A stretch of DNA of 64,000 bases from contig NC_087074.1 of the NCBI RefSeq assembly GCF_026151205.1, positions 496,001 to 560,000 of the forward strand, written 5' to 3'. This DNA comes from Bolinopsis microptera (Eukaryota; Ctenophora; Tentaculata; Lobata; Bolinopsidae). How positions within the stretch are numbered: position 1 is the stretch's first letter; the number at the start of each line of letters is the position of its first letter. A program made the translations under genes and the position numbers. Under the pieces are notes generated by a model. The model made no database searches. It was not told the DNA's origin and worked only from the letters and a program-made list of their open reading frames with translations. This document shows, in pieces, positions 27,516 through 58,100 of this stretch.

Positions 27516-30500
27516 ATGAGCAAGTACACAGCATTGAGCAGGGCTCAGCTCAGTTTTGAATATCTGCACACCAACAGGTTTGACAGCTATTCCATTATTG
27601 ATTATTCATTACTTTCATTGAAATACATATGTAGCATATCTGATCCGTCTTTCTGATTATTAATGAACTTTTTCTAAACTTGCACTCCTGGTAATTGCGT
27701 TCCATGACTGGGGATGAGCGTAACATCATTTTCAAAATATAATCATTTGAATTATACACTAGTCAAAATTATACAACCAGTTAAAAAATACTGACTGAAT
27801 AGTTATAAATAGATGCAATTTTCAGCACAATACAACTCATGAATTCCTCTTTCAGCACAACTCATGAATTCCTGTTTGGGGCCCTAGCAGAGCTTCTCGA
27901 CAACTCAAGGGATGCTGCAGCCACAAAAGTCAACATTTTCACAGTCCAAAGAGAAGACCTCCGAGGAGGATGCATGCTATGTTTTCTAGATGATGGTGAC
28001 GGTATGGAACCAGATGAAGTATCATCAGTTATGAGATTTGGGTCGTCTTGTAAGAAATCTGGGGAGTCAAACATGATTGGACAGTATGGTAATGGCCTCA
28101 AATCTGGCTCCATGAGGATAGGGAAGGATTTTGTTTTGTTTACAAAAAAAGAAAATACAATGAGTTGTCTGATGCTGTCAAGGACTTTTCACGAAACAGA
28201 GAATTTGAACGAGGTTATAGTGCCCATGCCAAGTTGGAACAGACAAACCAGACTCCCACTTCCTGCTCATGATGACGACAGGGAAAAGCATTCCATTGTT
28301 AGTTTTTTTTCAGAACATTTCATACATATTTATTGTGTGATTGTTTTCAATTTTCTATAGCATCATTTAAAAATCACAGTTTTACAAGGTGTAGCAATCT
28401 GGTTATTTCAGTTTTATTGTCAAAGGTTCGGGTAATTTAATTTCAATTAATTAATTAGATTTTAATCCCCAGGAGCTGGATTTAATACTTAAGTACTCTC
28501 CATTCAACACGAAGAAACAGCTGTTTGAACAGTTTGATAAGATTGACAGTGATACAGGGACATTGGTGGTGGTTTACAACCTAAAAACACTAGATGATGG
28601 GGAACCTGAAATCGATGTATGCTCTCATATCAAATAATATATTTCACTTTCTCATATCATATAATATATTTCACTTTCCAAAACGAATGTTGTCTGTTCG
28701 TATAATTTGTCAAATTTATCTCCAATTTTAGCTTAAGCTGCACCTGCAGACAACCCCGTATTTTTTATTTTAGTTCCTCTTAAACCCAAATCTGATGACC
28801 TCATAACAGTTAAAATAACAGGTAAAATGATTTTTCAGATCTACACAGATCCGCAAGATATACTGTTGACACAGATGGACTACGAGAAAGAGTATGAAGA
28901 TGAACGGGAGCACTTCACCATCCCAGAGAAGAAGTCTTTTCGTGCTTACACGGCAGTTCTTTACCAAGAGCCCAGGATGCGCATCTATGTGCAGAATTCT
29001 AAAGTCAGAACTAAACGACTGGAAACTCTAACTCATTTAACAAAGTAAGATTTTCATCTTGAATTATAAATATTACACGTATTATAATACTTTACAAGCC
29101 ACTATAGGGGATGTGTACTACAAATAGGACTTAGTTCTAAAAGTATAGATTTACTATTACTTACTACTAGTACTACTTTATCTAGCTCGTACTTTCCAAT
29201 TTCCGTGATCTCTGTTTCATTTTTGTGTCCATTGTTATTATTTTAAAGTTAAATTGATTTTTTCAGACAGATTTTCATTTTCAGACAGTACGAGTATTCC
29301 TCAGCTCGGTTCAAAGCTCGATCAGAAAAAGAAACATTTGAAGCAGAAAACCGTTGCAAGCTGGCAGAAGAACGGGCACGAGAAGCTGAATCAGATGCGC
29401 GGAGCGTAGAGAGACGTCTAGGAGAGGGGGGGTCTAAGGAGGAGAGGATGGAGATGAGGATAGCTCAGAGACATGCTATAGAGTGTAGGAGGGACTGTGA
29501 GGTTCTCAAGAAACTAGCTGAGAGAAAACGAAAGTACGTTGGATAGCCTAGTTGCCATAGTAACTAGTAGTGTAGCCTAGTTGCCATAGTAACTAGTAGT
29601 GTAGCCTAGTTGGGTCATTCAGTGCATCTCACACTTTATTCTTATCATGACACAATATTCCTGGTTACTGTCATCAATTTCTTCAATTTCTTCGTCGTCA
29701 TGGGAAACAGTTTTTATCTTTTCTGAACCATTACGTCAAAATATATAAATTTTAACTGATATTGGCCTCCCCAGATCATTGAAAGAACCAAAGACCCTCA
29801 GATTCACATTCGGTCTGAACATCCAAAACAGGAAATGTTTCGGAATGTTTGTTTACAACTGCAGTCGCCTGATAAAGATGTACGAGCGCGTGGGACCTCA
29901 GCTAGAGGGAGGCAGTTCGGGTGTGGGGGTCATTGGTGTTGTTAATGTTCCTTATTTAGTACTGGAACCTACGCATAATAAGCAGGACTTTGCTGACGCT
30001 AAGGTTTGTTAGTAGGCGCTGTCTTAGGAGTTTTATAATTGGTGCTTTCGTATCATGAGAGCTTTAAATGGGATCACTTCTATTACTTTTGAAAGATTTG
30101 CTGTCGACTTAAAATACAGTAGTACCTTGATTTGGGCTAATGTTAATAAAGTTTCGATGTGTTATCAATATATTAAAGACAGACTTGTTACAGGAGTACA
30201 GGCATCTGTTGCGAGCCCTAGGAGAGCACCTCCATCACTACTGGCAGGTGTGTGGAGTAGTAGACCCCCGTACAGGATCTGGTGTCAGGAACTTCTGGGC
30301 TGAGTTCGGATACTTCACCAATAAGTGGACTGAGGAACCCAGTCAGGAACCGAAATATATGAAGAAACGACTCATGAAGACTAACCAGTGGATGCAATGC
30401 GGTGAATAACCAGCTTATATATAGTAGTGAACTACCCTCCCTGCTACTGGAGTAGTAGTGTTGAAAGTATTAACCAGCTCCGTGCTGAAAGGATAAAACT

Positions 30501-33193
30501 TTCGTTCTTGTTAGCTCTCTTTATATAAATTAACCAAAAAGTAACCGATTAGTAACCGAATTATTTGTCACGTAGATCGGTGTCTAAAGTGGAGAGTACT
30601 GCCGTTTTCTCACGCTAATTACAAAGTCAACGAGAGCCTAAGTGACGAATGGACTTGTCATCAAAACCCTGATGTCAACTATAACAAGTAAGCCTCAAAT
30701 ATCCTCTTCATGTTTACAGTTTAGGGGATACGCACTTTAATCAGTGTATAGTGGTGTGTAGTGGTATAATCTCTGTCTTTAGGATCTGTCATAGACTTTG
30801 ATCTTTTATTATACCTTGATTTGGGTCCAGTAGATTGTGTAGACTTATAAAAGTAATTACTCTCTCAGGTGTATGATAGCAGAACAGCAGATAAAGATTC
30901 CCTCAGCCAGTATTGCACAAAAACCTTTCGAGGATAAAACTCCAAAAAAAGCAATAGAGGCACCTCGTGATCGGAAGAAGAGTGGGGAAGAAAGGAGGAA
31001 ATCTGCTGCTGATGATATCATCGCTAGACGTGTTAGTATTCCACCACAATTATAATAATAATAATAACAATAAATTGAAGTTTAATAACACCGCTATTAA
31101 GATAAAACTTACACTCAGCAGTGTTTAAACTACTCATCCCAGAAAATGATATGAATACTAAGTTAAGAAAAGTAACTGCTTGAAAATATATCGTCAATAC
31201 TAAAGCCAGAAAATGGTACTTAAACATATTATGCAAAGATCAAACACCAGATAAGACAAAAATAGTTATCGATAAAGTTTTTCAATTTCATCTAGGGACA
31301 GTTTAAAAAGGTAGGTTATACTATTTAATCGAAAGGATTTCGGATAGAAATATTCTAAGTATAAATTTATCTCTTACCGTACTAACCATCGACTTAGACC
31401 CTACCTCATGGTATTTACATTTTCTTATTTTTCAGAGTTCTAAGAGGAGTGTATCCCCTATAGTAATGTCCAGAACCCCGGAGACAGCTAAGAAGAGCTC
31501 CTCTAAACTTGTCTCTAAATCCACACCTAAACCCCCAAAAGCAGTCGTATCAGAGAAAAAGTCAGATAATGTGAAGGAGAACAGCTCGAGGATTCCTTCA
31601 AAAAGGAACGCAGTGGAACCTCCCGGGTTTGACCGGGTAATTTACTGTCTTCTTGTTGTTCTGTTTTAACTTTGTGTTTGCAGGAATAATTTTACTTTGT
31701 TATCTCTGACTTTGCTAGTTGGCCTCTCGTTACTAAAACTCGTCTGTTTCTCCATGGCACAAAGTTAAAGCTTAATCAGTATTATAATAAGTAGTTGAAA
31801 TCACTGAACAATGTTTCTATCTGGAGTAGGAAGAGTACAAACGATTAAAAGAGAAATACAAAAAGAAGGCTGCTGCTGCGGTTGAAGACGAGGAGGAGAG
31901 TGAGGAAGAGGAAGAGAAACCTACAGTAAAGAAGAATGGTATTCTCGGAAGTAAAAGGGTATGAATTATTCAGATCCTTTATTCAAGATGTAGTCTTCAG
32001 GTTAACTAAAATCAATTTATCAGTTAGTCTGTGCTTATGGCCCCTACTAAGAAAACTTGCGGTATTCGTTTTTATTGCCGAAATCTTTTGTGAAGAGAGT
32101 CTATCATTTCAGAGTATAACCCCTCAAAAAAGTACAGAACTGCCGAACAAGAAACCGAAAGAGAACAAACCCAACAACCACCATGCCGATATCGCTAGTC
32201 CAAACAAGAATAACAACATCGAGAAAGGTATGCTATGGAATTTATTCGCATTATATATTAACTAAATTCTGAAATGTCGATTCTTTATTTAACATCGCTT
32301 TATACAAGGTTTCTGTAACCTTTATCAGAATTCAGGACGCTCAGAAATGACACAGTTCATATCTAGTTCCCGATGATTATATTACCAGAAATATGCGCAT
32401 AACTCATAAATATGCGTGCATCTCGCCCTAATTGGAGCATTTAAGTAGATAAAATTAAAATACTACTCAATTTATACAAGAATCCTCAGTTGAAGCTCCC
32501 CGAGAGGTGGTGAACCTTAAGAAAATACAAGATAAATTAGCGGAGAGTTTGCGGCTGTGTTTACATTACTTCTCCCCTCCCTCCTGGCCAACTAAAAAGG
32601 AGGATCTTATTAACCTGGACCTAGATAAACTCCTAGACTTTCCTTTGGTTAGTTAATTAGTTGAACCATTACAATGCCCAGTTAAATTTACCGAGTTAAA
32701 TTTACTGGTTTTTATGTTTTACAATTTACACGATAAACTCCAATCTAATCTCTAACATTGGTTTTTATTATTTCCTATTCAACAGAATAAGTTTTTCGAC
32801 ACATACGAAGTGAATCTAACAGAACTGATAGCACAGTATCAGCAACACGCTTCAGACGCAGAGAAAAGGGCCGAGACAACCGAAACTAAACTAGCTAATC
32901 TTAGAAAACTTGTCATGCAGCTTCTAAAACCTTCTCTTAATTTCGTGAGTTAAATAAGGTTTAAGTTATGATTGGGTTAAATATCTGAGTCTTTTGCTTT
33001 TTAATATACGGAAATTTACTGATTCAAAGATAGCTGAACCAGGAAAAGTATTAAGATTAAATTTGTTATCATTGTACAGGACACAGAAACAGACTGTAAT
33101 ACAGACGAGATAGGAGACAATGTAGACGAGATCCTAGCAGCGGTGGTAAAAGAGAGCACCAAGAGTAGTCAGCCAAGTGATGTCACTTCGTGA
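27516..33193 (+). CDS. MORC2: MORC family CW-type zinc finger protein 2 (GHKL ATPase)
   Basis: Fifteen exons: 27516-27577, 27856-28297, 28473-28616, 28839-29044, 29285-29533, 29775-30003, 30194-30401, 30576-30687, 30869-31031, 31436-31636, 31830-31958, 32113-32227, 32481-32647, 32786-32944, 33080-33193. All junctions are GT-AG and the phases close (2700 bases, 899 residues). MORC2 is a nuclear ATPase that compacts chromatin and supports HUSH-type silencing. Seen: N-terminus [18 protein letters not shown] motifs [18 protein letters not shown] and [17 protein letters not shown], a coiled coil inserted in the ATPase module (exon 5), [14 protein letters not shown], and a CW finger (about 510-555) with CDRCLKWR and EWTC. 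A basic Ser/Lys-rich linker precedes a conserved C-terminal helix ([15 protein letters not shown]) and a terminal coiled coil. It is about 130 residues shorter than human MORC2, and no chromo-like domain was recognised. Two acceptors are tandemly duplicated in frame. Confidence 0.95.
27820..27880 (+). repeat. Duplicated 3' splice site of MORC2 exon 2
   Basis: The acceptor and first exon bases (ttcagcacaa...ctcatgaattcct) occur twice in tandem, AG at 27825 and again at 27855. The step is exactly 30 bases, and the upstream copy contains no stop in the reading phase, so use of the first AG would insert ten residues just before the GHKL domain without breaking the frame. The annotated exon uses the second site because it gives the conserved [11 protein letters not shown] join. 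Confidence 0.85.
28621..28678 (+). repeat. Two-copy repeat just inside MORC2 intron 3
   Basis: ctcatatca(a/t)ataatatatttcacttt is repeated directly with a period of about 28 bases, starting a few bases after the donor at 28617. It does not include the splice site itself. Confidence 0.75.
29255..29300 (+). repeat. Duplicated 3' splice site of MORC2 exon 5
   Basis: tttcagacag occurs twice, with AG at 29266 and 29284. The 18-base step keeps the frame and has no stop, so the upstream site would add six residues (QIFIFR) before QYEYSSARF. The second site restores the family sequence better. Confidence 0.75.
29543..29612 (+). repeat. 29-bp repeat with X-box-like motif in MORC2 intron 5
   Basis: About 2.4 copies of agcctagttgccatagtaac plus actagtagtgt begin about ten bases after the exon 5 donor. 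Each full copy holds gttgccatagtaac, which fits the RFX X-box consensus (GTNRCC, 0-3 bases, RGYAAC). Confidence 0.8.
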
Positions 33194-33243
33194 CGTCACA
33201 CCCTCTCCCACGTGACGTCATACCAACGTTCACGTGACGTCAT
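33178..33243 (+). promoter_or_regulatory. Cluster of CRE-type palindromes at the MORC2 stop codon
   Basis: Three perfect tgacgtca octamers lie at 33191, 33213 and 33235, spaced exactly 22 bases, with a variant tgatgtca at 33178. The first overlaps the TGA stop. tgacgtca is the CREB/ATF binding site; two of the copies also overlap cacgtg. The equal spacing shows this is a 22-base tandem repeat. Regulatory use is inference. Confidence 0.5.
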
Positions 33244-34437
33244 ACTACCTCTTACAAATGAGACTTGATTGAAGGAGTTAATTTAAAGTGTGTTTCTCAG
33301 AGCAGTGTGTTGCTTCGCGGCTTCGTTAAAAGATTAAATAATGGAAAATAAGAATTCTTCTCCAGCTCTCAGATCTAATACACTACACAGCAATTCTCTG
33401 AGATGCGTGAAAAATATGAACATTGTTTAATTTGTTTGTTTTCCCGTAAACATAATTGCAAAATTGTTGATTTGCACTTTAAAAAGCATTAATCGTTTTC
33501 CATTCAAATCGTGTACTTCGTTCTCATGTTTTTATAACTTCAGTGATCTGAATTGGAAACTACACAATAAGTACACAAGCATTACATATTTTGAGGTTAA
33601 TATATAGAATAATAGACAATATATTATAGTTCAATGTAGTAAGAGTACGATTACAATATATTATAGTTCAATGTAGTAAGAGTACGATTAGAGCACCATG
33701 TTTACAGAACTTACCAATATCTGGTTTTTTGTTTTTTTATTAATTTGTGTGACATAGCTTAAATTAAAAACTAGCATTACTTATATTCTAATGATAATAA
33801 TGAAGCAGTCTTCAATCTTCATCCACCGTATATAGTAAGAAGTACAGTTTGCATATAAAACACTTTTCGCTATTTGAAGTTTATTTCTTTCACAGAATAA
33901 GAAAATTGAATGTTGAACGTTGGTAATCTAGCTATATAAGTTATGACGCAGCGCCGAGCATTGCGCGCACAATAAAATAATTAACTTATTAACGAGGTGT
34001 AAGCTTGCACAAGAATATTATTTCCACCAGGAGAAGCTCATTATGATACACCCGAGAAAATTTGGTTTTCGATGGAAGTTTAGAATTTGTTTAGATGTCA
34101 CACGTAGGATCTAACATTTTACTCTTGCTTTATGTTGTCATTAATTATTTTAATTTTACTGCTATTTTGAAGACATCTATTCTTGAGTATTTCCTTACGT
34201 AGCCAACGTACGCGTTATATGGGGGGGGGGGGGGGGGGCATGATACCCCCGTTTTATATTACCAGCTAGAACTTAATACTTATGCATGTGGTATTTTGCG
34301 ATTCAGAATACGATTCAAAAATTTATAAAAATTAGATTAGATTTGATTACGCATGAAATTGAACCAATTATGCATTATATATCTCAAACTTACACTATAA
34401 ATACTATTAGGTTGTAAAAAACAAGAAGACAAAGAAA
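33194..34437. other. Intergenic region between MORC2 and EXOSC10
   Basis: AT-rich, no gene. It contains a 36-base unit in two copies (about 33617-33690, aatatattatagttcaatgt) and a poly-G run (about 34220-34238). The EXOSC10 promoter should lie at its right end. Confidence 0.5.
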
Positions 34438-37400
34438 ATGCCTCCCAGAAGGAAAAAGAAAAGGCCCGCAAAGGTCATAGACCTCGAAACAGTGAATGAA
34501 ACTGAAAACTCAAGTGAAACATCTCCTATTGAGACTATACCACCAGTTGAAGACAGTGAAACTGTAAAACCCACTACAAAGAAGAAAAAAGGGAAGAAAA
34601 ACAAGAAAACCGCTGTATCGCCCGATGATTCAGTAGTAGAACCAGTATGTCCCCCTGAAAGTGAAGAAGAAGCTAAATCAGCACCTCAAAAAAGCTCTGT
34701 CAGAAAGCGACCTACTGCAGCAGACCTTATAATATCAGAAGACCCCTCACCAGTTCCTGAAGTAAGCTCTGTCTCAGAAACCCTAGATATGAGCAGCGAG
34801 TCTTCTTCTAAAGTCTCAAGACGGGCTGCAGCGGTCGATTTTATGGACGAATCGACCCTGGTCCCTGCCAAAACGAGAAAATCCCCGAATACCAAGGCTG
34901 CGCTTCCAAAAGAGGAGGTGGTTAAAGCACATTCCTCTGAAACCGTGTCTCCAAACGAGAATGAGGAGATGACTGCGGAGGAGGAGGGGGATGGTATTGG
35001 AGGTGGCCTCGAGTTTCTAGGTTATCCTAACTTTGATGCTTACTCCAACTCTCTTCTGCCTGCAGGTTTGGAGAATTGTTTGTGGAGAATCGATAAATTT
35101 ATTTTTGGTCTGTTATTTGATTCTTATTCTTATCCTAATTGTGAAAAAATATTAAAGTATTATTCAGTGCCATTTCTTGAAAAAAATATATAAGTCACAT
35201 ATTGATTTCCTGGATAGTGGTTCAGTTCCTGAAGGTAACGAAACAGTTACCCAGCACAAAAGATGAGTACGATTTCTTCCTTTCTTACCCTTCCTTCATG
35301 GCGTTCAGTAAAAATCAGGGTCAAAGAGTCCTTCAACTCATTGGCAAGGTAATATATATTCAAATATTAACCTGTTTTTTATTGATACTGAGATACTGTG
35401 TGATCTTCCGCTATCAATATGATGCTGCTATCAATCATATGGATTTTCATAAAGTCTCTATCCAGTAATGTTCTATGCCAATAATTAATCATAACTCCTC
35501 CCCGCTATGCTAATTAAGCACTAATTAAGAACTTTATGTATTATGCTGATTTAATAGGACCCTCTCCAGATATTCAAACACCACCACGTGTATACTGATT
35601 TAGTCCTCCCCAGATATTCAAACACCACCATGTGTATCAAGCCTGGAACACACTCCCCTCCAACACAGTCACCGGTATAGAGGAACAGAGTGAGGCTGTT
35701 GTAGAGGCTAACGACACTCTGCTGGAGAGAGTTGATAAGATACTCGACATGTTGAAACAGAACAAGAACGAGAATAAACTCGAAGTGCAGCAGAAATCTT
35801 CTAAAAACGTGCGCGAGTGTTAAACGTTATTTCATCTGATTATCCGTGATTGAGAAAGTTTTGTCATATTTAATTTCCGAAATCTAATAAATTAGGTCTT
35901 GTCACTAGTTGAAATAGTTTTGATGATGATGAAATGTCAGGTGCTGGTAGCCGCATGGAACGCTAACAGTAACACCCAGCAAAACAAACCTATTCGTCTG
36001 CTCCACAGTAAGAACATCCTCAGACCGCAGTTGAGGTGGAAAGTGAAACCTGACAACACCAGTGTTCCCTTCGTCCCTAACATAAAACACAAACCTAACG
36101 CTAAGGTAACATGGTTATTGCTCTAGAAATATAAAGGTTATGTTACTTGTGTTCTAGAAATATAAAGGTTATGTTACTTGTGTTCTAGAAATATAAAGGT
36201 TATGTTACTTGTGTTCTAGAAATATAAAGGTTATGTTACTTGTGTTCTAGAAATATAAAGGTTATGTTACTTGTGTTCTAGAAATATAAAGGTTATGTTA
36301 CTTGTGTTCTAGAAATATAAAGGTTATGTTACTTGTGTTCTAGAAATATAAAGGTTATGCTACTTGTGTTCTAGAAATATAAAGGTTATGTTACTTGTGT
36401 TCTAGAAATATAAAGGTTATGTTACTTGTGTTCTAGAAATATAAAGGTTATGTTACTTGTGTTCTAGAAATATAAAGGTTATGTTACTTGTGTTCTAGAA
36501 ATATAAAGGTTATGTTACTTGTGTTCTAGAAATATAAAGGTTTTGCTACTTGTGTTCTAGAAATATAAAGGTTATGTTACTTGTGTTCTAGAAATATAAA
36601 GGTTATGTTACTTGTGTTCTAGAAATATAAAGGTTTTGCTACTTGTGTTCTAGAAATATAAAGGTTATGTTACTTGTGTTCTAGAAATATAAAGGTTATG
36701 CTACTTGTGTTCTAGAAATATAAAGGTTTTGCTACTTGTGTTCTAGAAATATAAAGGTTATGTTACTTGTGTTCTAGAAATATAAAGGTTATGTTACTTG
36801 TGTTCTAGAAATATAAAGGTTATGTTACTTGTGTTCTAGAAATATAAAGGTTTTGCTACTTGTGTTCTAGAAATATAAAGGTTATGTTACTTGTGTTCTA
36901 GAAATATAAAGGTTATGTTACTTGTGTTCTAGAAATATAAAGGTTTTGCTACTTGTGTTCTAGAAATATAAAGGTTATGTTACTTATGTTCTAGAAATAT
37001 AAAGGTTATGCTACTTGTGTTCTAGAAATATAAAGGTTTTGCTACTTGTGTTCTAGAAATATAAAGGTTATGTTACTTGTGTTCTAGAAATATAAAGGTT
37101 ATGTTACTTGTGTTCTAGAAATATAAAGGTTATGTTACTTGTGTTCTAGAAATATAAAGGTTATGTTACTTGTGTTCTCAAGAGCTCTTGAACCTGCAAT
37201 TGCAATATACACCTATCAAATATTTTCTAATGCTTCTTAGATGAAAAATGATAAATTATTTTTCCAGATTTTCAATTTCTACCCACAGGTGCCCCTACCA
37301 GAGATTTACAAATCACTGCTAAATGATGGACAGGATATAAATCTAACAGTTTTCTTGAAATCAGCAAGAGGAGATCAGAATGTCGACTATCCTCATCCCT

Positions 37401-40400
37401 ATCAGGTTTATATTTATCACGTTATTTCCGTCTTAGGATGTTCGTCATATTTTCGTAGCAGCATTATTGAATCAATTAAGGTGTAAACTGTAAAGATACT
37501 TAGTACATGAACAAATCAAAAACTATGTTAACTCATATCTCAACTTCTCAGCATGAGTTAGAAACTTTGGATCTACGACCATGGCAGCACGAACTAGGAC
37601 TAAAACAGGAGCCCAAGGAGGTAAAGGACACCCCCCTCACCATCATAGATCAACCTGATCAAATACCAGACCTCGTCAGGAAACTGGAGCAAGCTAAAGA
37701 GATAGCAGTGGATCTGGAGGCCCATAGTTACAGATCCTATCTAGGATTTACTTGTCTCATGCAGGTTTGTCTCATGAACCTGAACTTTTATTTCAGTTTC
37801 CTTCTCGTGATATAAACCTAAATTACTGAAAAATTTCACTGGTTCAAGATAGTGTGTCGAATACACCCAAAACTCGGCTTATCTCTGTTCATATCTTATC
37901 TTGTACCCTCCAACAGTCTCTGTTCATATCTTATCTTGTACCCTCCAACAGTCTCTGTTCATATCTTATCTTGTACCCTCCAACAGTCTCTGTTCATATC
38001 TTATCTTGTACCCTCCAACAGTCTCTGTTCATATCTTATCTTGTACCCTCCAACAGTCTCTGTTCATATCTTATCTTGTACCCTCCAACAGTCTCTGTTC
38101 ATATCTTATCTTGTACCCTCCAACAGTCTCTGTTCATATCTTATCTTGTACCCTCCAACAGTCTCTGTTCATATCTTGTCTTGTACCCTCCAACAGTCTC
38201 TGTTCATATCTTGTCTTGTACCCTCCAACAGTCTCTGTTCATATCTTATCTTGTACCCTCCAACAGTCTCTGTTCATATCTTATCTTGTACCCTCCAACA
38301 GTCTCTGTTCATATCTTATCTTGTACCCTCCAACAGTCTCTGTTCATATCTTATCTTGTACCCTCCAACAGTCTCTGTTCATATCTTATCTTGTACCCTC
38401 CAACAGTCTCTGTTCATATCTTATCTTGTACCCTCCAACAGTCTCTGTTCATATCTTATCTTGTACCCTCCAACAGTCTCTGTTCATATCTTATCTTGTA
38501 CCCTCCAACAGTCTCTGTTCATATCTTATCTTGTACCCTCCAACAGTCTCTGTTCATATCTTATCTTGTACCCTCCAACAGTCTCTGTTCATATCTTATC
38601 TTGTACCCTCCAACAGTCTCTGTTCATATCTTATCTTGTACCCTCCAACAGTCTCTGTTCATATCTTATCTTGTACCCTCCAACAGTCTCTGTTCATATC
38701 TTATCTTGTACCCTCCAACAGTCTCTGTTCATATCTTATCTTGTACCCTCCAACAGTCTCTGTTCATATCTTATCTTGTACCCTCCAACAGTCTCTGTTC
38801 ATATCTTATCTTGTACCCTCCAACAGTCTCTGTTCATATCTTATCTTGTACCCTCCAACAGTCTCTGTTCATATCTTATCTTGTACCCTCCAACAGTCTC
38901 TGTTCATATCTTATCTTGTACCCTCCAACAGTCTCTGTTCATATCTTATCTTGTACCCTCCAACAGTCTCTGTTCATATCTTATCTTGTACCCTCCAACA
39001 GTCTCTGTTCATATCTTATCTTGTACCCTCCAACGCTTCAACTGAGAAGTACTAACACTAAAACCTGCCCAGTTATCAACAAGAACAGAGGACTTCATAG
39101 TGGACACGTTATCACTGAGAACTGAGTTGTTACCATTAAATACTGTGTTTACAAATCCCGCCATACTCAAGGTATTTAATATACTGTGCCGAGTCACCTT
39201 TTACTTTGCAGCAAAAATAGAAGCAAATTCTTGAGATATAAAGCGTTTTAATAGGTTTATAGAGAAGTTCCAAGTGTTTCACTGTAAAATTGCAGGTACT
39301 ACACGGTGGTATAAATGATATCAGGTGGTTGCAACGGGACCTGGGACTTTACATTGTGAACATGTTCGACACCTACCATGCGTCCAAACAGCTGGGTCTG
39401 CCGAGATGTAGCTTATCTTATCTACTACACAAATACTGTGACGTTACTGCAGATAAACAATACCAGGTTTGTGCCAGGTATCTTTTTTTTACAGCGTAGT
39501 TTTTTTACAGCGCATTTGCGTGTGTACTTGTACATTACTATACAAGTACACCATGGAGGATGATCTTAATTTGACCCGATCTCTGAAGAAAATCAAGGAT
39601 TTCAATTATGAAGAAAAGGAAGATGTAGAGGGCTGTGTTGATAGATGGTTCACTACGACGGCAAAATAACTGAAAATAGACGACGTCGACATTCGTGAAA
39701 ATATGGACAAAGAAATATTAATAGCTCCGTCTATTTATAAAAGGTATATGGCATACTGGGTTACTCAAGCAGCAGACCTTGTACGGCGGCAGAGTAGGCA
39801 GATAAGCACTGTGATGGAAATCATTGAGTGCCTCAAGACGGAAGCGCGCGCTAGCAGACAAGGAAAAGGTGATCAGGCTGCAGGACCAGCTGCTGGTGCA
39901 GAAGGACGAACAACTACAGTTGTTTAAGACGTCGGTTGAAGAGACAGTACAAACAACGGTGGAGTCAGGGATTAAGAGCTACAGTGCAGCAGTACAAAAG
40001 GACAGCAAAAGTGGTACAATCTGCAACAGTAAAATTCTGAAGAATGTGATGAAGAGTGTGGCTGCAGAGGAGGACAGGAGCGAGAATCTGATTGTGTTTG
40101 GGCTGAAAGAAGAGGATGAAGAACAGCTTCCAGCTCTGGTAACCGCAGTATTGGAGGATATCGGGGAGAAACCTCATTTCGAAGCGAAAAGAGTCGGCTG
40201 GAAGAGGCCAGGTACGGCTATCAGACCAGTCAAGATCACCGTCCCAAGCTCAACAGCGGTTCATCAGATTCTGATAAAAACATGAAGACTGAGGCTGGCT
40301 GAGGCACACAAAGATGTATGGATTTGTCCTGATAGATCCAGTGAAGAGCGTGCAGCAAGGAAGAACGTGGTAACTGACCTGAAGAAGAAGAGGGCTGAAC

Positions 40401-44554: not shown

Positions 44555-45973
44555 ATGGCTAATATTGTCAGAAGAGCTACCTGCCAGTTTTTCAATGTCG
44601 GGAGTAGAAACTTCAGTGTCTCAGCACCAAGACATGCCAAAGTCTCAGTTCTCGGAGCTGCTGGCGGCATTGGCCAACCCCTCTCTCTTCTCCTCAAACA
44701 GGTACTTTTAGTTTCAGTTACAAGTTCAGAAATGCTTTTGAAGAGATGCGTTTGTTTGCCGGTAAGGGTAGGTCTGAGCGTATACTAAAAAACATATGAG
44801 CCAGCCCATTATGCTCGGAATTTGTTTTATGTTGCCGGTATACCTCTTATCACAGAAAAGAAAGCCTTTTTCGGCCTGCGCCCATATACAACATGTATCA
44901 ATTACCGGTAGTAACCAAGAAGCCTGAGCACTAATAGTAGATTTTAAATTTGTCTACCCTAATATTGGTCAGGTTTTTGGATACTGCCCGATTTTAGTAC
45001 AATAAAACACCTTATATTTACCGGTTATGTAATTGAACGAGGGGGGGGGGGGGGGGGGGTCACTATAGTCACTATACTCGCGCCAGCATCCCCAACTAAT
45101 TCGAAGGACTTATGACTAATCGGTTCCGAATCAAAAGTTCAAAATTCAACTGTTTTATTTACCAATATGGATATGTTCATAAAGAATTCGTTTTAACTTG
45201 TTTGCATGAAAAGTATTAATAGAATGAAATAGTCTGTGTTTAACATATTATTACGTGCATAACAACAATATCAAATTAGTTTGTAAAAATAGGCATAGGC
45301 TGCTATATTCCCTGAATTAATCAACTATATTAAAACTATAATAAGAACCGTTGAGGTGAAATTGTTTGACTTCTAGATTGCTTGATGTGACAAAATTAAG
45401 ATTTATTGCCTCTATTTTGAAAAACCATACCTCGATTAGAACATAACTTTACTTTATGATCACTAGCAGGAACCCGTCTAACCCTTAAATGGTGTCAAGA
45501 CTCAAGAGACTAAAACAATTATTACCTATTTAATTCGCGTTTTTGACACCACTTGGGGTACCAAATTTTGGGCTCTAAAACTCCTATTTCTTGGCCAATT
45601 TTTTATTTTTTCATTCTGATTTGGAGGCCATTAAAGCATTTGACCCAGTCAAAAAAGTTTCAGTTGTATATCTTTGACGGTTTTTGCAGAAATTCGCGTT
45701 AAAGTTGATGCTGTGGTGTCAGTAAAATGGCAATATATATATATTTTTTACAAAAATCCGTTAAATATGCAGATAAATTTAGACTTATGGAACTATCCTA
45801 TTTATTGCACGGCAACAAGAGGCCCATATTGGGGGGGGGGGGGGGGGTCGCTACACTTGACCCCCCCCCTTAAGGTTTTAAAAAAAATCATTGATAGATT
45901 TACAGATCTAGCTTGACAAAAATTTTCAGAAAAAATCATGTTCACGGGAAGCGAAAATCCGTTCAGTTTTTCA

Positions 45974-46010
<37 letters not shown>

Positions 46011-49000
46011 CGTGTGTGTTTGTTTTAAAAAGTTGTTTTTATTATTTTAAAGTTTTTATTGTACTACAACTTCTGTACATCTTGTAGTTGTACACTTTCA
46101 TAACTTATTAAATAATCGAAATTTGATGATTGATTGAAATACAATGTTTTAATTATAATTTCGATTATTTGGAATCGAAAAAATTAATCTATAAATGAAT
46201 AACGGAATCTTCATTATGAAGTTACGAGATGATAATATAATTGGGGGGCAAAGTGGGGATCACAAAATTACCGGAAGTGTATGAGGCTGGCCGCTGTCGA
46301 GTGGGTCTGCCTAAAATTCACAGATCTAGCTATGGGTCTGAGACATATGTTTAAAAGAACCTTACCCCCACTTGACCCCCCCCCCCCCCCCGGCCCCCAG
46401 GCCACATTAGCTTAGTCACATATTTATCTCATGTTTAATATTGTACTAATATCCTCAAGTTCAAATGTTTTTACACATATGCTGATATGCTTATAGAATC
46501 GAGAATGTTCTGCTTTTAAAATCTAGAATGTTCTGTCTCGAATGAATGTTAGTTTGCTTAGATGTAAGGCTTGATCGATAAAATGTATATTAGGATAAAA
46601 TAACAAGTCGGGAAGTATTAGTCTAAATTAAAGCCGTGTGGATGTTTTATACTTAAGTTAGCTTTACTTATATCTGGATACTGTTGGGGAGCTTAAGTGT
46701 TTTGTTTTATGACTAATCTGTTTCCACTATTGAACAATGAAAATCTACAGAATCACTGTTCAAAACAAATGTATATATTAGCCTCATCTTTCTTTTCAAT
46801 GGAATTCACTAAACTTAATATAATTTCTGAGTTTTAATCCTCGCAGTAACTAAACCTCACCCCAGTCGACGCTGATCTCAGAGTTAGCACTGTACGACGT
46901 GGCTAATACTGTGGGCGTGGCGTGTGATTTGTCTCACATTGAATCTGCAGCTCAGGTCAAGGGATACGTTGGGGATTCTCAACTTGAAGAGTGCCTTCAG
47001 GGTTAGTGTTATCACTTACTTAACACTTCAGGGTTAGTGTTATCACTTACTTAACACTTCAGGGTTAGTGTTATCACTTACTTAACACTTCAGGGTTAGT
47101 GTTATCACTTACCTACTTAACACTTAACCAGCGAATTGTAAATATGGTAGAAGATTTTTAAATGGAGTGGAACTCATAGCCATTTAGCCATTTAGTCACA
47201 AAAGTTCGGTCTCTCACCATAATGTACCCATTATCATCGCCATGAACAAATTTGTTGTTCCCAAAGTGAGATTTTTCTCTACCCACTGACTTTGACTTAA
47301 CAAAAACTCATTTCAGGCAGTAAGATTGTGGTAATGCCCGCTGGTGTACCCAGAAAACCCGGCATGACACGTGACGATTTGTTCAACATCAACGCCGGAA
47401 TTGCTATGTCTCTCGCAGAGGCTGCCTCCAAAGCTTGTCCTGATGCCATGCTCTGCATCATCTCCAACCCGGTCAACTCTACTGTACCTATCGCTGCAGA
47501 GGTCAGTACTATATATATATTATATATAGAGGTCAGTTCTATCGCTCTCCCTACTACTAATGAGTCCGGTTTTTACCGTAAACTTGAAATTTAAAACATA
47601 ATTATGGAGGAATGCGGTTAGTTTTCGGAGTATATGCAGGCGAAAGGTCCGTGGGTATTGGTAACTATAGTTTCCTGACAAATTAATCTATTTAAAGACC
47701 TTACCTCACCTCTTAGGAGTCGTTCACATATTACGTAATCAGCCGAGGGGGGAGGGGGGGGTTTCCAAATGCTTACGGTTGATTACGGGGGGGGGGGGGG
47801 GGGGTTTCGGTTGTTGATTACGTAATCAAAATTTTGTTTTTTACCCTCTAGAATAATAACAATTTGACAATATTTTAATTCAAATTCCACTCAATTTCAC
47901 TCTGATAGTGATAAAATTTAGAAATTGATCGAATATCCGGCTATAATAGTAAGTAGTTTAGAAGGTGCCTGGCCGGATATCATGATAGCATGATCAGGGT
48001 AGCATGAAACGTAGAGAAAAGTGGTTTCTAGGGAAAAAGTCAAGGGGGCGGGGGGGGGGGGGGGGTCAGGCCATGATTACGTAATATTGCTGTCAGGAGG
48101 GGGGGGGGGGGGTTGGGTCTTGATTACGGTTGATTACAGAAGGGGGGGGGGGGGGGTAAAAATTGCTAAAATATTGATTACGTAATATGTGAACGACCTC
48201 TTATCAACACATACCAAGGTTTACAAGAAGAACGGAGTATTCGACCCTCGGAAGCTGTTCGGAGTAACCACGTTGGACATAGTGCGAGCTAACACATTCA
48301 TCTCGGAGCTGAAGGGAACTCCAGTAACCCAGACCCAGTGCCCTGTCATTGGGGGTCACGCAGGTACGTGCTAACCCAGACCCAGTGCCCTGTCATAGGG
48401 GGTCACGCAGGTACGTGCTAACCCAGACCCAGTGCCCTGTCATAGGGGGTCACGCAGGTACGTGCTAACCCAGACCCAGTGCCCTGTCATAGGGGGTCAC
48501 GCAGGTACGTGCTAACCCAGACCCAGTGCCCTGTCATAGGGGGTCACGCAGGTACGTGCTAACCCAGACCCAGTGCCCTGTCATTGGGGGTCACGCAGGT
48601 ACGTGCCACGAGGTTAGGGTTAGGTGTAAAGGGAACTCCAGTAACCCAGACCCAGTGCCCTGTCATTGGGGGTCACGCAGGTACGTGCTAACCCAGACCC
48701 AGTGCCCTGTCATAGGGGGTCACGCAGGTACGTGCTAACCCAGACCCAGTGCCCTGTCATTGGGGGTCACGAAGGTACGTGCTAACCCAGACCCAGTGCC
48801 CTGTCATAGGGGGTCACGCAGGTACGTGCTAACCCAGACCCAGTGCCCCTGTCATTGGGGGTCACGCAGGTACGTGCTAACCCAGACCCAGTGCCCTGTC
48901 ATTGGGGGTCACGCAGGTACGTGCTAACCCAGACTCAGTGCCCTGTCATTGGGGGTCACGCAGGTACGTGCTAACCCAGACCCAGTGCCCTGTCATTGGG

Positions 49001-51605
49001 GGTCACGCAGGTACGTGCTAACCCAGACCCAGTGCCCTGTCATTGGGGGTCACGAAGGTACGTGCTAACCCAGACCCAGTGCCCTGTCATAGGGGGTCAC
49101 GCAGGTACGTGCTAACCCAGACCCAGTGCCCTGTCATTGGGGGTCACGCAGGTACGTGCTAACCCAGACCCAGTGCCCTGTCATTGGGGGTCACGCAGGT
49201 ACGTGCTAACCCAGACCCAGTGCCCTGTCATTGGGGGTCACGCAGGTACGTGCTAACCCAGACCCAGTGCCCTGTCATTGGGGGTCACGCAGGTACGTGC
49301 TAACCCAGACTCAGTGCCCTGTCATTGGGGGTCACGCAGGTACGTGCTAACCCAGACCCAGTGCCCTGTCATTGGGGGTCACGCAGGTACGTGCTAACCC
49401 AGACCCAGTGCCCCTGTCATTGGGGGTCACGAAGGTACGTGCTAACCCAGACCCAGTGCCCTGTCATAGGGGGTCACGCAGGTACGTGCTAACCCAGACC
49501 CAGTGCCCTGTCATTGGGGGTCACGCAGGTACGTGCTAACCCAGACCCAGTGCCCTGTCATTGGGGGTCACGCAGGTACGTGCCACGAGGTTAGGGTTAG
49601 GTGTAAAGGGAACTCCAGTAACCCAGACCCAGTGCCCTGTCATTGGGGGTCACGCAGGTACGTGCTAACCCAGACCCAGTACGCTGTCATTGGGGGTCAC
49701 GCAGGTACGTGCTAACCCAGACCCAGTGCCCTGTCATTGGGGGTCACGCAGGTACGTGCTAACCCAGACCCAGTGCCCTGTCATTGGGGGTCACGCAGGT
49801 ACGTGCCACGAGGTTAGGGTTAGGTGTGACGTCATAGGGGGTCACGCAGGTACGTGCCACCAGGTTAGGGTTAGGTGTGACACATGATCTGTTTCATTCG
49901 CTGATGATTCATAGCTAATATCTGCGTAATCTGATAATTGTATGTGCAGAAAATGTTTAGGTCGTGAAGCACGTTGGTTATTGTAAGATGATATGTTATA
50001 TCGGGTTAGGTGCCACAAAACCCTGTCGTTAGTAATTCGGTACACTCTCAATGGTTTCAGGAGTCACAATCCTACCCCTCCTCTCCCAAGTGGAGCCGAG
50101 CTGCGAGTTCACAGACGAGGAACGAGCAGCCCTCACGGTTAGGATTCAGAATGCAGGAACTGAGGTTGTGGACGCTAAAGCAGGAGGTAGGAAACTTGTG
50201 GGCCAGGTCCCCAGACCGGTCTGGACTCATTAAATCTCGCAACTATTACACGTCCCCCCCCCCCCCCCCCCCCTCAACTATTACACGCCCCCCCCCCCCC
50301 CCAAATATTACACGTCCCCCCCAACTATTACACGTCCCCCCAACTAGTCCCCCCTCCCAACTATTACACGTCCACCCCCCCCCCCCCCAACTATTACACG
50401 TCCCCCCCCCCCCCCCCAACTATTACACGTCCCCCCCCCCCCAAATATTACACGTCCCCCCCAACTATTACACGTCCCCCCAACTAGTCCCCCCCCTCCC
50501 AACTATTACACGTCCCCCCCCCCAACTATTACACGTCCCCCCCCTCGCACCTATTACACGTACCCCCCCCCCCCCCCAACTATTACACGTCCCCCCCTAA
50601 CTATTACACGTCCCCCCCCCCAACTATTACACGTCCCCCCCCCCCAACTATTACACGCCCCCCCCCCCCCCCCCCAACTATTACACGTCTCCCCTCCCAA
50701 CTATTACACGTCCCCCCTCCCCCTCCCCAACTATTACACGTCCCCCCTCGGCCTCCCCCTCCCCAACTATTACACGTCCCCCCTCCCCCTCCCGCGCGAG
50801 TAAACCACATTTTGTTAAGCGACGTATCCTCTCAGGAGGCTCAGCTACTTTGAGTATGGCGTACGCTGGAGCCCGATTCGCGTTTGCTCTACTGCAGGCC
50901 ATGAACGGTGCTAAGAATGTCGTGGAATGCAGCTACGTAAGTAACCATTTTAATCAAGCCAACGATAACACAACTCAGTCTTCTCTAATGTCATATTCGA
51001 CTGAATATTTTAAATTCTCATTCTCAAAAATTATTTTTGAGTATTTTTGAGAAAAGTTTCCAGGAGATCGAGAGGCGGAAACTCATTCTCATGATTTTGA
51101 GTATTTTTGGACCACATTGCACTGATATGAAGAATGATTTGGTATATCATTATTTTTGAGTAGACAATTTTTAAGAAAATGAGAGATCCATGCTGAATTT
51201 CTCAGATTCAAACATAATTTTTTAGTGGACAATTTTTGAGAAAATGAGAAATCCATGCTGAATTTCTCAGATTCAAAAATAATTTTTGAGACATATTTGA
51301 GTATTCTCGGCGAAAATGGTCAAATTCTCAGATTCAAAAATTCTCAAAAATACTCATGACCCCCCCCCCCCCCCCCCCCCCTAAATTACTCGAGTTCATG
51401 ATAATATAAATATACCACATCGCAGGTTGAATCAGACGTAACAGATCTGCAATTCTTCTCGAACCCCCTTCTTTTGGGACCCCACGGAATCGAAGCGAAC
51501 CTCGGAATGGGAACCCTGATCGACTTCGAACAGGAATGTCTCGAGAAACTGAAGCCGGAGCTGTCAGGTAGCATCGCTAAAGGAGTCGCATTCGCCAACC
51601 AATAA
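44555..51605 (+). CDS. MDH2: Malate dehydrogenase, mitochondrial
   Basis: Seven exons: 44555-44701, 46866-47001, 47317-47501, 48219-48363, 50061-50186, 50836-50936, 51426-51605; phases close (1020 bases, 339 residues, human 338). The enzyme interconverts malate and oxaloacetate with NAD in the TCA cycle and malate-aspartate shuttle. Seen: an Arg-rich mitochondrial presequence (residues 1-24, [19 protein letters not shown]), the dinucleotide fold ([13 protein letters not shown], about 30-42), substrate-binding loop [33 protein letters not shown], active-site VIGGHAG at the exon 4/5 boundary, [11 protein letters not shown] and [14 protein letters not shown]. Exon 2 must start at 46866 because an in-frame TAA lies just upstream. 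Introns are loaded with tandem repeats, poly-G or poly-C runs and an inverted-repeat element. The stop TAA is embedded in AATAAA. Confidence 0.97.
46994..47120 (+). repeat. 31-bp repeat spanning the MDH2 exon 2 donor
   Basis: Four copies of cttcagggttagtgttatca plus cttacttaaca. The first copy begins with the last eight bases of exon 2 (cttcagg) followed by the donor gttagt, so exon end and 5' splice site are repeated together. The coding exon uses the first copy. Confidence 0.93.
47716..48197. mobile_element. Inverted-repeat element with poly-G tracts in MDH2 intron 3
   Basis: About 480 bases with matching ends gtcgttcacatattacgtaa and, inverted, attacgtaatatgtgaacga, flanked by cctctta on both sides (47709-47715 and 48197-48203, the last overlapping the end by one base). 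The interior alternates ggttgattac phrases with runs of 10-18 G. Related fragments are at about 54283-54310 and 61165-61180. No transposase. The right end is only about 21 bases from the exon 4 acceptor, so the branch point probably lies in the element. Confidence 0.75.
48312..49880 (+). repeat. 47-bp array copying the MDH2 exon 4 end and its donor
   Basis: About 33 tandem copies of a 47-base unit. In the first, 48317-48363 is the true end of exon 4 (codes [13 protein letters not shown], containing the catalytic His loop) and gtacgtg is the true donor. Later units repeat cagacccagtgccctgtcat, gggggtcacgcag and gtacgtgct with T/A and small length variants. Three longer units also contain aagggaactccag (more of exon 4) or gaggttagggttaggtg. 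Read in frame past any donor, the unit gives TGC TAA, a stop. Confidence 0.96.
50238..50795 (+). repeat. Poly-C minisatellite in MDH2 intron 5
   Basis: About 22 units of aactattacacgt followed by 6-20 C, later mixed with cccctc blocks. It nearly fills the intron up to the exon 6 acceptor. The C runs could form i-motifs, and the opposite strand G-quadruplexes. Open frames across it (poly-Pro or poly-Gly) are artefacts. Confidence 0.92.
50990..51382. repeat. Dyad-rich AT repeats and poly-C run in MDH2 intron 6
   Basis: Repeated and mutually inverted phrases of the type ttctcagattcaaaaataat and attatttttgagtatttt occur several times from about 51005 to 51358, followed by a run of 22 C at 51361-51382. 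They could form hairpins; origin unknown. Confidence 0.65.
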
Positions 51606-51606: not shown

Positions 51607-52168
51607 CAAACTACCATTAATTAATTAGTGATTCGTGATCTTCATTATAAGTATGGGACCCGATTACTAGTGTGATACTGGTGTGATACTGGTGTGTTAC
51701 TGGTAGTTACTGGGAGTTGATTGCACACCCCTTGACCTCTCTATTGAGAGAAAGTTACACTTAATTGTTATTGTTTAATTTATTAAACTTGCATCTAGCT
51801 TCAAATATTCGATTTTACAACACTAAGATCACCCTTCAGTCTTCGCTGGTTTTAGCCAAGTGACCGGAAGCTCTTATTTTGGTGTGGATTAGGATAAATG
51901 ATTTGTTTTGCCGTGAAAGTTTTGTACACATGTTTAGATCAATACTTCTTACACAGATGTAATAGCAAAGCGTATATTTTCTTTCTTCAGTTGAAGGTGG
52001 CGTGATTTCAAAACTGATTTTAATCATCTCAAAATCGTAAAGGTCAAATAAAGACATTCAAATAAAACTGTTTTTAACGATGTAATTTACGAGTCTCACA
52101 TTAGAATCCTCCGGCCTGAACCCAGCTGAATAACTTGTCCAATAGCTCACTTAAGAATGTGATCATAC

Positions 52169-55100: not shown

Positions 55101-58100
55101 TGTAGTATGTAGTATGTAGTATGTAGTATGTAGTATGTAGTGTATTATTTAGTATGTAGTATGTAGTTTGTAGTTTGTAGTATGTAGTATGTAGTATTTA
55201 GTGTAGTATGTAGTGTAGTATTTAGTGTAGTATGTAATATGTAGTACGTAGTGTAGTATGTAGTATGTAGTATGTAGTATGTAGTATGTAGTATGTAGTA
55301 TGTAGTGTATTATTTAGTATGTAGTATGTAGTATGTAGTATGTAGTATGTAGTATGTAGTATGTAGTATGTAGTATGTAGTATGTAGTTACAAATAAAAT
55401 TAAAATTTTATATAACAGTTAAAAAATCAATAAAACCCACCAGCCACTATCCTCGACACTAGCTAGTTGAGTTAGGGTTACTTCTATCAAGGTGTCTTCA
55501 GCATTGTTACTGGTGATATCAAAATCCTGCGGCGGATGAGGAATTTAAAAAATCGTGCTAATTAGAAGAGTTATAACTGTCATGTAAAATGTAAATCGGA
55601 AATAGGATTTCATCTCATTCAATGAATCGAGTGTTAATCTATATCTTAATTTTGATTTTCCCGAAGTGATAAACTTTGTTAAGGAATTGCATGATTAATG
55701 CAGTGTAGCGGTGAAAAAGGTAGATCAAATTATTACAAACCAATTCAATGTCGTCTTCGTTGTCCACGCTGTTAAATGAATCCTCGCTGAGTTTTATTAT
55801 CTTGGCAGTGGGAGGGGGGTAGGCTCTGACTATGCAGGACAGAATCATCGTGTCTCCTGAGAAAGAGGGGATCATGGTGTGTCTCCTGAGAAAGAGGGGA
55901 TCATAGTGCCATCCCCGATCATGGTGCCACCCCCGACAAGATGAGGTAAATATAATTGTGACAAAATGCTTGAACAGGAATTTGCAGTACTAAGGGGCTA
56001 TCTGCTTACGACGTCCGGCAAATAGGGAGGGGTGGTTTTGGAATTTTGGAAAAATCCGGACAGGGGGAGGGGGGGGGTTGGTTTCAGTAAATCCGGACGT
56101 CCGGAAATGTTGGCAGAATTAACGAAAAAGTCCCATTTATTTCAACTCTTTGAATTCTATTTCAACTCTATGAATTTTATTAATAATGAATTTGAGTTGA
56201 TTTTATTTGTACTCTTAAAAGTAGCTGGATATCCGGACGTCCGGGGGAGGAGGGGGGGGGAGGGGTGGTTTTAAAAATTCGGACACACCCGGACAGGGGG
56301 AGGGGGTGGTCTGAAAATCTGCGATTTTGGCGGACGTTCAGTTTCCCATGATGTTGCTTTGAAGTTTAGTTAAAAGTCTTAGATATTAGAATGTAATTGT
56401 ATACCCATCATTGTGGCAATATTGTACTGTTCATGATACATTCAACACTACAATTATATAACAAATAATTTGAGGAAGCGATGTAACAGAACCAATATTT
56501 AATGTCCCCACCCCCTCCCCCAAGTCCCCATTCATCGCAGCTCTCTAGTTTTACTGCATCTTAATGTTATTCAGTACGAACTACAAGTCGTTCGGCTGTC
56601 AATTCAATAAAATTAATTAAATTCAAATTTTATATCAGGTAACTTGTGCTGGTTACTCTAATATGATGCGAACTCTCATTGAATCATGAGCAAGACACAT
56701 TTAAAGACAGGTCAACTAGAGGTTAAATACTGAAATTATTTCAGCCTAATTTGATCTTCTAATGTACCATTCACCACAATCCGTTACCTAGTGTCACTAG
56801 ACAGGTACTAGTAGTGCCTACCTAGTGGCACTAGGCAGGTACTAGTATTGTAACACTGGTAACTAGTAGTGCCTACCTAGTGGCACTAGGCAGGTACTAG
56901 TATTGTAACCCTGGTAACTAGTAGCGCCTACCTAGTGGCACTAGGCAGGTACTAGTATTGTAACCCTGGTAACTAGTAGCGCCTACCTAGTGGCACTAGG
57001 CAGGTACTAGTATTGTAACACTGGTAACTAGTAGTGCCTACCTAGTGGCACTAGGCAGGTACTAGTATTGTAACCCTGGTAACTAGTAGCGCCTACCTAG
57101 TGGCACTAGGCAGGTACTAGTATTGTAACCCTGGTAACTAGTAGTCCCTACCTAGTGGCACTAGGCAGGTACTAGTATTGTAACCCTGGTAACTAGTAGT
57201 GCCTACCTAGTGGCACTAGGCAGGTACTAGTATTGTAACCCTGGTAACTAGTAGTCCCTACCTAGTGGCACTAGGCAGGTACTAGTATTGTAACCCTGGT
57301 AACTAGTAGTGCCTACCTAGTGGCACTAGGCAGGTACTAGTATTGTAACCCTGGTAACTAGTAGTCCCTACCTAGTGGCACTAGGCAGGTACTAGTATTG
57401 TAACCCTGGTAACTAGTAGTGCCTACCTAGTGGCACTAGGCAGGTACTAGTATTGTAACCCTGGTAACTAGTAGTGCCTACCTAGTGGCACTAGGCAGGT
57501 ACTAGTATTGTAACCCTGGTAACTAGTAGTGCCTACCTAGTGGCACTAGGCAGGTACTAGTATTGTTACCCTGGTAACTAGTAGTGCCTACCTAGTGGCA
57601 CTAGGCAGGTACTAGTATTGTTACCCTGGTAACTAGTAGTGCCTACCTAGTGGCACTAGGCAGGTACTAGTATTGTAACCCTGGTAACTAGTAGTGCCTA
57701 CCTAGTGGCACTAGGCAGGTACTAGTATTGTAACCCTGGTAACTAGTAGTCCCTACCTAGTGGCACTAGGCAGGTACTAGTATTGTAACCTTGGTAACTA
57801 GTAGTGCCTACCTCTGACATGTGTCACGTGCTCAACACATGTTACTCATCAGGAAAGCATTTTAACCCTGTGATCATTCTATGTAAATGATGAAGTATTG
57901 TAACCATGGTAACTAGTGTAAATGATAAAGTATTGTAACCATGGTAACTAGTGTAAATGATAAAGTATTGTAACCATGGTAACTAGTGTAAATGATAAAG
58001 TATTGTAACCATGGTAACTAGTGTAAATGATAAAGTATTGTAACCATGGTAACTAGTGTAAATGATAAAGTATTGTAACCATGGTAACTAGTGTAAATGA

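What the first reader, a model, noticed from the sequence alone, without database searches (positions are those of the whole stretch)
27820..55912. Recurrent tandem duplication of exon-intron boundaries across four genes
At least eight splice junctions in four adjacent genes are repeated in tandem with the splice site inside the unit: acceptors of MORC2 exons 2 and 5, EXOSC10 exons 3 and 13 and one Ig exon; donors of MDH2 exons 2 and 4, and, with divergence, EXOSC10 exons 4 and 11. Units range from 18 to 61 bases and from 2 to over 30 copies. By chance, short duplications should fall mostly in intron interiors. The pattern matches intermediates expected under the known tandem-duplication model of intron gain (duplicated AGGT-containing segments supply both splice sites) and suggests either an active mutational process aimed at junctions, such as R-loops or staggered breaks in transcribed DNA, or selection that preserves those falling there.
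Basis: partly seen in the sequence, partly recalled or inferred. Interest (0 to 1): 0.9.

Follow-up and report, generated by a model that had tools for sequence, protein, structure and literature searches.

The report
Tandem repeats across splice junctions
In what looks like a comb jelly genome, short stretches that straddle exon-intron borders have been copied in tandem, from twice to about seventy times, leaving genes with rows of duplicate splice signals; this resembles the 'mirages' known from lancelets and seems more frequent near intron ends than chance would give.

Summary
Of nine named junctions, six are clear tandem duplications with the splice site inside the unit (MORC2 exon 2; EXOSC10 exons 3 and 13; an Ig exon; MDH2 exons 2 and 4). 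EXOSC10 exon 11 is supported with divergence, MORC2 exon 5 rests on 11 bases, EXOSC10 exon 4 is not supported. The window alone shows no significant enrichment (P 0.18-0.35), because its introns are short. A sample elsewhere in the same genome (129 introns) does: 7 of 31 duplications span a junction against 2.6-2.8 expected (P 0.009-0.016); 14 of 31 span it or lie within 25 bp against 6.3 (P 0.0003-0.0014). The excess covers intron ends, not the splice site alone. Intron gain by duplication is not supported (1 of 161 introns, as in the null). The closest known thing is the 'mirage' of amphioxus; the genome fits the ctenophore Bolinopsis microptera. At 14 junctions examined the frame-keeping site is the exon-proximal copy; 10 of them carry 206 decoys about as strong, 200 of which would bring in a stop, so splicing should choose by position. 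No RNA was available.

The parts
27516..33193 (+). MORC2 gene, 15 coding exons
   Evidence: closed frame, GT-AG; PDB MORC2 match of the first 462 residues, 4.7e-186
27820..27877 (+). two copies over the MORC2 exon 2 acceptor (used junction 27855/27856); the upstream copy would add 30 nt
   Evidence: 11 bases identical through the junction at offset 30, 17 more at offset 25
29262..29298 (+). marginal repeat at the MORC2 exon 5 acceptor (junction 29284/29285), 11 bases at spacing 18
   Evidence: shuffle P 0.0035
34438..44184 (+). EXOSC10 gene, 13 coding exons
   Evidence: closed frame, GT-AG; PDB EXOSC10 match of the first 611 residues, 4.6e-107
35540..35640 (+). two copies over the EXOSC10 exon 3 acceptor (junction 35613/35614)
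   Evidence: offset 44; gapped alignment of 49 columns
36122..37178 (+). 31-bp x 34 array inside EXOSC10 intron 4, 16 bp after the donor; not a copy of the junction
   Evidence: junction similarity P 0.42
37882..39034 (+). 35-bp x 33 array inside EXOSC10 intron 6, no junction included
41516..42895 (+). EXOSC10 exon 11 donor (junction 41525/41526) and the 46-bp x 29 array derived from it with divergence
   Evidence: junction against consensus unit P 0.0005, against first unit P 0.11
43402..43515 (+). 61-bp period, two copies over the EXOSC10 exon 13 acceptor (junction 43468/43469)
   Evidence: 53 of 53 identical
44555..51605 (+). MDH2 gene, 7 coding exons
   Evidence: closed frame, GT-AG; PDB malate dehydrogenase 3.9e-130
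46995..47112 (+). 31-bp x 3.8 array over the MDH2 exon 2 donor (junction 47001/47002)
   Evidence: 100% matches; 3 decoy donors as strong as the used one
48325..49881 (+). 47-bp x 32 array, with larger nested duplications, over the MDH2 exon 4 donor (junction 48363/48364); 30 decoy donors
   Evidence: found only here in the genome search
55849..55936 (-). 29-bp x 2 copies over the acceptor of an Ig-domain exon (junction 55856/55857), plus an 18-bp repeat upstream
   Evidence: that this is an Ig exon is read from the translation, not from a profile search

Best explanation
These are 'mirages': local tandem duplications whose unit happens to include a splice junction, some of which later grew into minisatellites. 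SHOWN: copies straddle the borders of existing introns in several genes of this genome, on donor and acceptor sides; in the sample, duplications that span a junction, or span it or lie within 25 bp, are 2.2 to 3.1 times as frequent as uniform placement predicts; at the 14 junctions examined the site that keeps the reading frame is the exon-proximal copy (first of a donor array, last of an acceptor array). INFERRED: duplication is more frequent, or survives better, in the terminal ~60 bp of introns; one that crosses the border is tolerated because an intact exon-proximal copy remains; slippage or unequal exchange then expands some pairs into long arrays; splicing still works because sites are chosen by position next to the exon (exon definition), since sequence alone cannot tell the used site from its equal decoys. 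Mutational bias against selection is open; I lean to mutational bias, because decoys that bring in stops should if anything be selected against.
For: Six clear junction duplications in the window. Independent sample of 129 introns: 7 spanning of 31 events, 5 at donors and 2 at acceptors (kinesin L006, L014, L015, L017, L024 twice; TBC-domain gene L062), expected 2.82, P 0.016 or 2.64, P 0.009; larger events 7 of 18 against 2.24, P 0.003; spanning or within 25 bp 14 of 31 against 6.3, P 0.0014 and 0.00035. 87 arrays away from called junctions hold better donor motifs than random windows (one-sided P 0.002). No exon-side site within one bit of the used one at 14 of 14 junctions; 206 intron-side decoys at 10 of 14, 200 with a stop. 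The MDH2 unit is found only at its own locus.
Against: The window alone is not significant (4 of 14, P 0.18 and 0.35). Numbers are small and a few thresholds were tried. Acceptor motifs are not enriched in arrays (P 0.31). The coverage peak lies inside the intron, not at the junction. At 4 of 14 junctions (MORC2 exon 2, EXOSC10 exons 3, 11, 13) the used site already outscores the other copies, so no positional choice is needed there. Junctions are predicted, not confirmed by RNA.
Confidence: 0.75

Rival explanations
1. Uniform tandem duplication in a repeat-rich genome: junction cases are the share expected by chance when introns are short, kept because one copy of the junction survives.
For: The window alone agrees with this (4 of 14, expected 2.3-3.0). 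About 14% of the examined bases lie in tandem arrays (48,146 of 342,770).
Against: The sample shows an excess under a pooled and a within-intron null. GC is not higher at intron ends (0.30-0.37 in the first and last 120 bp against 0.37 deep in introns), so composition does not explain it.
Confidence: 0.2
2. Intermediates of intron gain by tandem duplication: a duplicated exonic segment with AGGT supplies both splice sites of a new intron.
For: Units carry splice sites, and the globin paper proposes mirages as raw material for new introns (PMC3087553 passages).
Against: Donor and acceptor flanks of the same intron are no more alike than chance: mean 4.57 against 4.51, 1 of 161 over the threshold. 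The duplications sit at introns that already exist; the L015 intron shares position and phase with one of L005.
Confidence: 0.05
3. Selection keeps junction duplications because extra splice sites help splicing or regulate it.
For: In long arrays the copies keep strong sites: 30 decoys at MDH2 exon 4, 49 at L006, 67 at L062 within one bit of the used site.
Against: 200 of 206 decoys would bring in a stop. Homogenisation of arrays keeps sites without selection. Arrays that lie close to a junction but do not include it are also in excess (7 of 24 interior events within 25 bp against 2.96, P 0.022).
Confidence: 0.15
4. Assembly artefact.
For: If the genome is B. microptera, it was assembled with wtdbg, gap-closed and polished with short reads (PMC10232365 passages), so copy numbers of long arrays may be wrong.
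Against: Copies differ by point variants, two-copy cases of under 120 bp exist, and the pattern recurs in unrelated genes on several contigs.
Confidence: 0.03

Closest known systems
'Mirages' of amphioxus: minisatellite-like tandem duplications of exon-intron boundaries (Adh3, globins BflGb6 and BflGb9, troponin C, PGBD5)
   Same: Tandem repeats span a 5' or 3' exon-intron border, copies carry AG/GT signals, units of tens of bases, near-identical copies within a cluster (PMC3087553 and PMC3902484, passages only; the original 2002 paper is not held).
   Different: Another phylum (ctenophore, inferred); arrays up to about 70 copies against 3-6 reported for BflGb6; tested for enrichment here. RNA evidence exists there, not here.
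Intron gain by tandem duplication of AGGT-containing exon segments
   Same: Small tandem duplications that carry splice signals.
   Different: Here existing borders are copied; intron flanks are not copies of each other (1 of 161). The potato case PMC4974935 was seen as a listing only.
Ordinary intronic minisatellites
   Same: Unit length, local arrays with similar copies; 24 of 31 sample events are interior.
   Different: Junction cases include coding sequence and a splice site that the gene needs in the first or last copy.

Membership tests
Mirages (junction-spanning minisatellites) | Tandem repeat spans an exon-intron border | tested here: met
   six clear in the window, seven in the sample
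Mirages (junction-spanning minisatellites) | Both donor and acceptor borders affected | tested here: met
   sample 5 donors and 2 acceptors; window 2 donors and 4 acceptors clear
Mirages (junction-spanning minisatellites) | Copies keep splice signals | tested here: met
   206 decoys within one bit of the used site at 10 of 14 junctions; none that strong at the other 4
Mirages (junction-spanning minisatellites) | Regular splicing is not disturbed | not testable with these tools
   no RNA held
Mirages (junction-spanning minisatellites) | Length instability between haplotypes | not testable with these tools
   one assembly only
Tandem-duplication intron gain | Donor and acceptor flanks of an intron are copies of one segment | tested here: not met
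   1 of 161 introns over the threshold, null 0.5%
Tandem-duplication intron gain | Intron absent from relatives | not testable with these tools
   no other ctenophore genome held
Introner elements or dispersed repeats | The same sequence at many places in the genome | tested here: not met
   one unit tested: all 12 matches of the MDH2 query lie in its own array; the DNA search skips very common words

The most novel reading that the evidence does not exclude
In ctenophores the DNA next to splice junctions is a hotspot of small tandem duplication tied to transcription or splicing, so that the genome carries very many junction-spanning arrays, some with 50-70 equal splice sites. Such genes work only because splice sites are chosen by exon definition (the copy next to the exon), which makes the arrays natural experiments on splice-site choice and a live source of raw material for new exons and introns.
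Probability: 0.3. Interest if true: 0.8.

Novelty: new member of a known kind. Interest (0 to 1): 0.6.

Why it matters
In the papers seen here, mirages are described only from amphioxus genes. Finding them in what looks like a ctenophore, with a measured excess near intron ends, points to a general process rather than a quirk of one group. The arrays pose a sharp question: how does the spliceosome pick one site out of up to 68 near-equals (L062)? Full-length RNA could answer it directly. They may also mislead gene prediction, which can stop at the wrong copy.

Tried and rejected
Rejected: intron gain by tandem duplication. Rejected as the cause of the excess: base composition. Rejected in general: that arrays close to junctions are decayed junction copies (0 of 15 side-tests within 60 bp at P < 0.02; 1 of 53 farther ones); EXOSC10 exon 11 passes against the consensus unit but not against its first unit (P 0.11). 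Inconclusive: microhomology at young duplications. A first list had 16 of 16 with one or more shared bases; a stricter exhaustive list had 18 of 45 with none (P 0.106), many of these inside larger arrays; I draw no conclusion. Not pursued: donor against acceptor bias (5:2 in the sample, 2:4 among the clear window cases). Searches that gave few usable introns: PF00501, PF00443, PF00566, PF00069. PF12780 was not used further.

Limits of the sample. Pieces were chosen by where exon matches lay, without looking at repeats. Profile rows typed in: 108 of 109 kinesin and 65 of 73 myosin; only rows inside fetched pieces. Introns: 98 called of 101 tried in the first set, 47 of 51 in the second with 5 more skipped as open in one frame; 129 of these 145 kept after score cut-offs and removal of duplicates. 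Earlier versions of the caller gave 70, then 97, of 102 for the first set and 51 of 56 for the second; with 90 introns of the first set there were 6 spanning events. Two pairs of near-identical gene copies (L001/L002, L022/L023) are counted as separate introns. In the window, one C-rich array of MDH2 intron 5 is split into three interior events, which lowers the window's spanning share. Not in any count: arrays in L038, L045, L063 (two) and L073 that follow open frames of 45-65 codons with a good donor.
Full report
WHAT THE WINDOW IS. It lies on contig C3 of a 264.65-Mb genome in 232 contigs. Contigs C1 to C13 are 15.2-26.2 Mb long and sum to about 258 Mb (lengths). A published table gives 265 Mb, 13 chromosomes and a largest chromosome of 26.2 Mb for the comb jelly Bolinopsis microptera, but 346 scaffolds (PMC11797021, passages). 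One glutamate-receptor gene of this genome matches ML032222a best in the PDB, at 407 bits against 243 for the next molecule, kainate receptor 2; that ML032222a is from the ctenophore Mnemiopsis is recalled. A second receptor gene matched kainate-type entries best. I take the genome as a ctenophore, most likely B. microptera (inference).

THE OBSERVATION. All exons of MORC2, EXOSC10 and MDH2 were placed, with closed reading frames and GT-AG introns, and the names hold against solved structures. MDH2 exon 4 is the most vivid in the window: 39 coding bases plus 8 intron bases, repeated about 32 times, with larger duplications nested in it.

IS IT MORE THAN CHANCE? In the window alone, not significantly: 4 of 14 events span a junction against 2.30 (pooled null) or 3.00 (within-intron null), P 0.18 and 0.35. 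This strict count misses MORC2 exon 2 (gapped) and EXOSC10 exon 11 (diverged), leaves out the Ig gene, and splits one C-rich interior array in three. So I sampled the same genome elsewhere, choosing pieces by exon matches of eight protein families and fetching 73 pieces. Borders were called from neighbouring profile matches, splice-site scores trained on the window, and reading frame; 129 introns were kept. With the same detector 31 events fell in them: 24 interior, 5 across donors, 2 across acceptors. Expected spanning: 2.82 (P 0.016), or 2.64 with each event confined to its own intron (P 0.009). For larger events (score 25 or more, unit 20 or more) 7 of 18 against 2.24 (P 0.003). Counting events that span or lie within 25 bp, 14 of 31 against 6.3 (P 0.0014; 0.00035). 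Sample and window together: 11 of 45 spanning against 5.12 or 5.64 (P 0.008 and 0.015). Numbers are small and a few thresholds were tried, but the sample results point the same way.

WHERE THE EXCESS LIES. With arrays cut to two copies, and all 161 introns pooled, coverage rises from 0.037 at the junction to a peak of 0.070 about 30 bp inside the intron, then falls to 0.014-0.022 at 120-160 bp, with a rise at 200 bp that rests on 4 of 74 intron sides. Deep positions come only from long introns, so the profile is a guide; the within-intron test is the firmer one. The excess thus covers intron ends, and junction-spanning cases are the part that reaches into the exon. GC does not explain it, and the near arrays are in general not decayed junction copies. 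Independently of border calls, 87 arrays away from called junctions hold better donor motifs than random windows (P 0.002); acceptor motifs show nothing in 98 arrays (P 0.31).

HOW IT LIKELY WORKS. Small tandem duplications arise locally; the one unit tested, that of MDH2 exon 4, is found only at its own place. Where one crosses a border, an intact border remains next to the exon, so the gene can still be spliced correctly. Some pairs then grow to tens of copies: about 32 at MDH2 exon 4, 25 at the L015 donor and 70 at the L062 acceptor (array lengths). At the 14 junctions examined, 7 in the window and 7 in the sample, no site within one bit of the used one lies on its exon side. At 10 of 14 there are decoys within one bit or better, 206 in all, on the intron side, and 200 would bring in a stop; at the other 4 the used site is stronger than its copies. 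If the genes are expressed, splice-site choice at the 10 must depend on position, as in exon definition. This is inference: the used site was assigned by coding frame and no RNA was seen.

WHAT IT IS NOT. Under the duplication model of intron gain, donor and acceptor flanks of an intron are copies. Among 161 introns one passes the threshold, as in the null. The mirage intron of kinesin L015 has the same position and phase as one in kinesin L005, so it is probably old.

CLOSEST KNOWN. Amphioxus 'mirages' fit closely (PMC3087553 and PMC3902484, passages only; the original 2002 paper is not held). Searches for ctenophore minisatellites or junction duplications found no report in this library, which holds only part of the literature; most listed papers were seen as listings only. 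I therefore call it a new member of a known kind, with the enrichment test as the main new fact.

OPEN. Mutational bias against selection; the breakpoint mechanism (microhomology results conflict); polymorphism; RNA.

Noticed in passing
window 2291-5206 (-) and 5778-9326 (-): VPS18 and RICTOR homologues are each one long open frame without introns, beside intron-rich genes.
   Followed up: no
window 12873-14111 (-) and 16036-19497 (+): Open frames with reverse transcriptase domains, LINE-like, the second also with an endonuclease domain.
   Followed up: no
window 61937-62830 and 63073-63999 (-): Two very similar open frames side by side (similar by eye); the first matches PepX_C.
   Followed up: no
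arrays in the window (e.g. 29544, 53259, 56807, 57882) and in the sample: Some unrelated arrays share words such as ACTAGTAGTG (4 of 98 arrays, 0 in 292,776 other positions) and GTAACTAGTA (3 of 98, 1 elsewhere).
   Followed up: partly
L001/L002 and L022/L023: Near-identical gene copies (97-99.7%) on the same contigs; one copy of each pair carries an extra stretch of about 0.9 and 3.5 kb; in L002 it lies in an intron and contains tandem arrays.
   Followed up: partly
window 34221-34238, 45041-45059, 45831-45847, 45974-46009, 51360-51381: Long runs of G or C, 17-36 bases, in introns and between genes.
   Followed up: no
L024 4550-4865 and 5717-6250: In one kinesin intron an interior array resembles the acceptor region that forms the acceptor array at the intron's end.
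   Followed up: no
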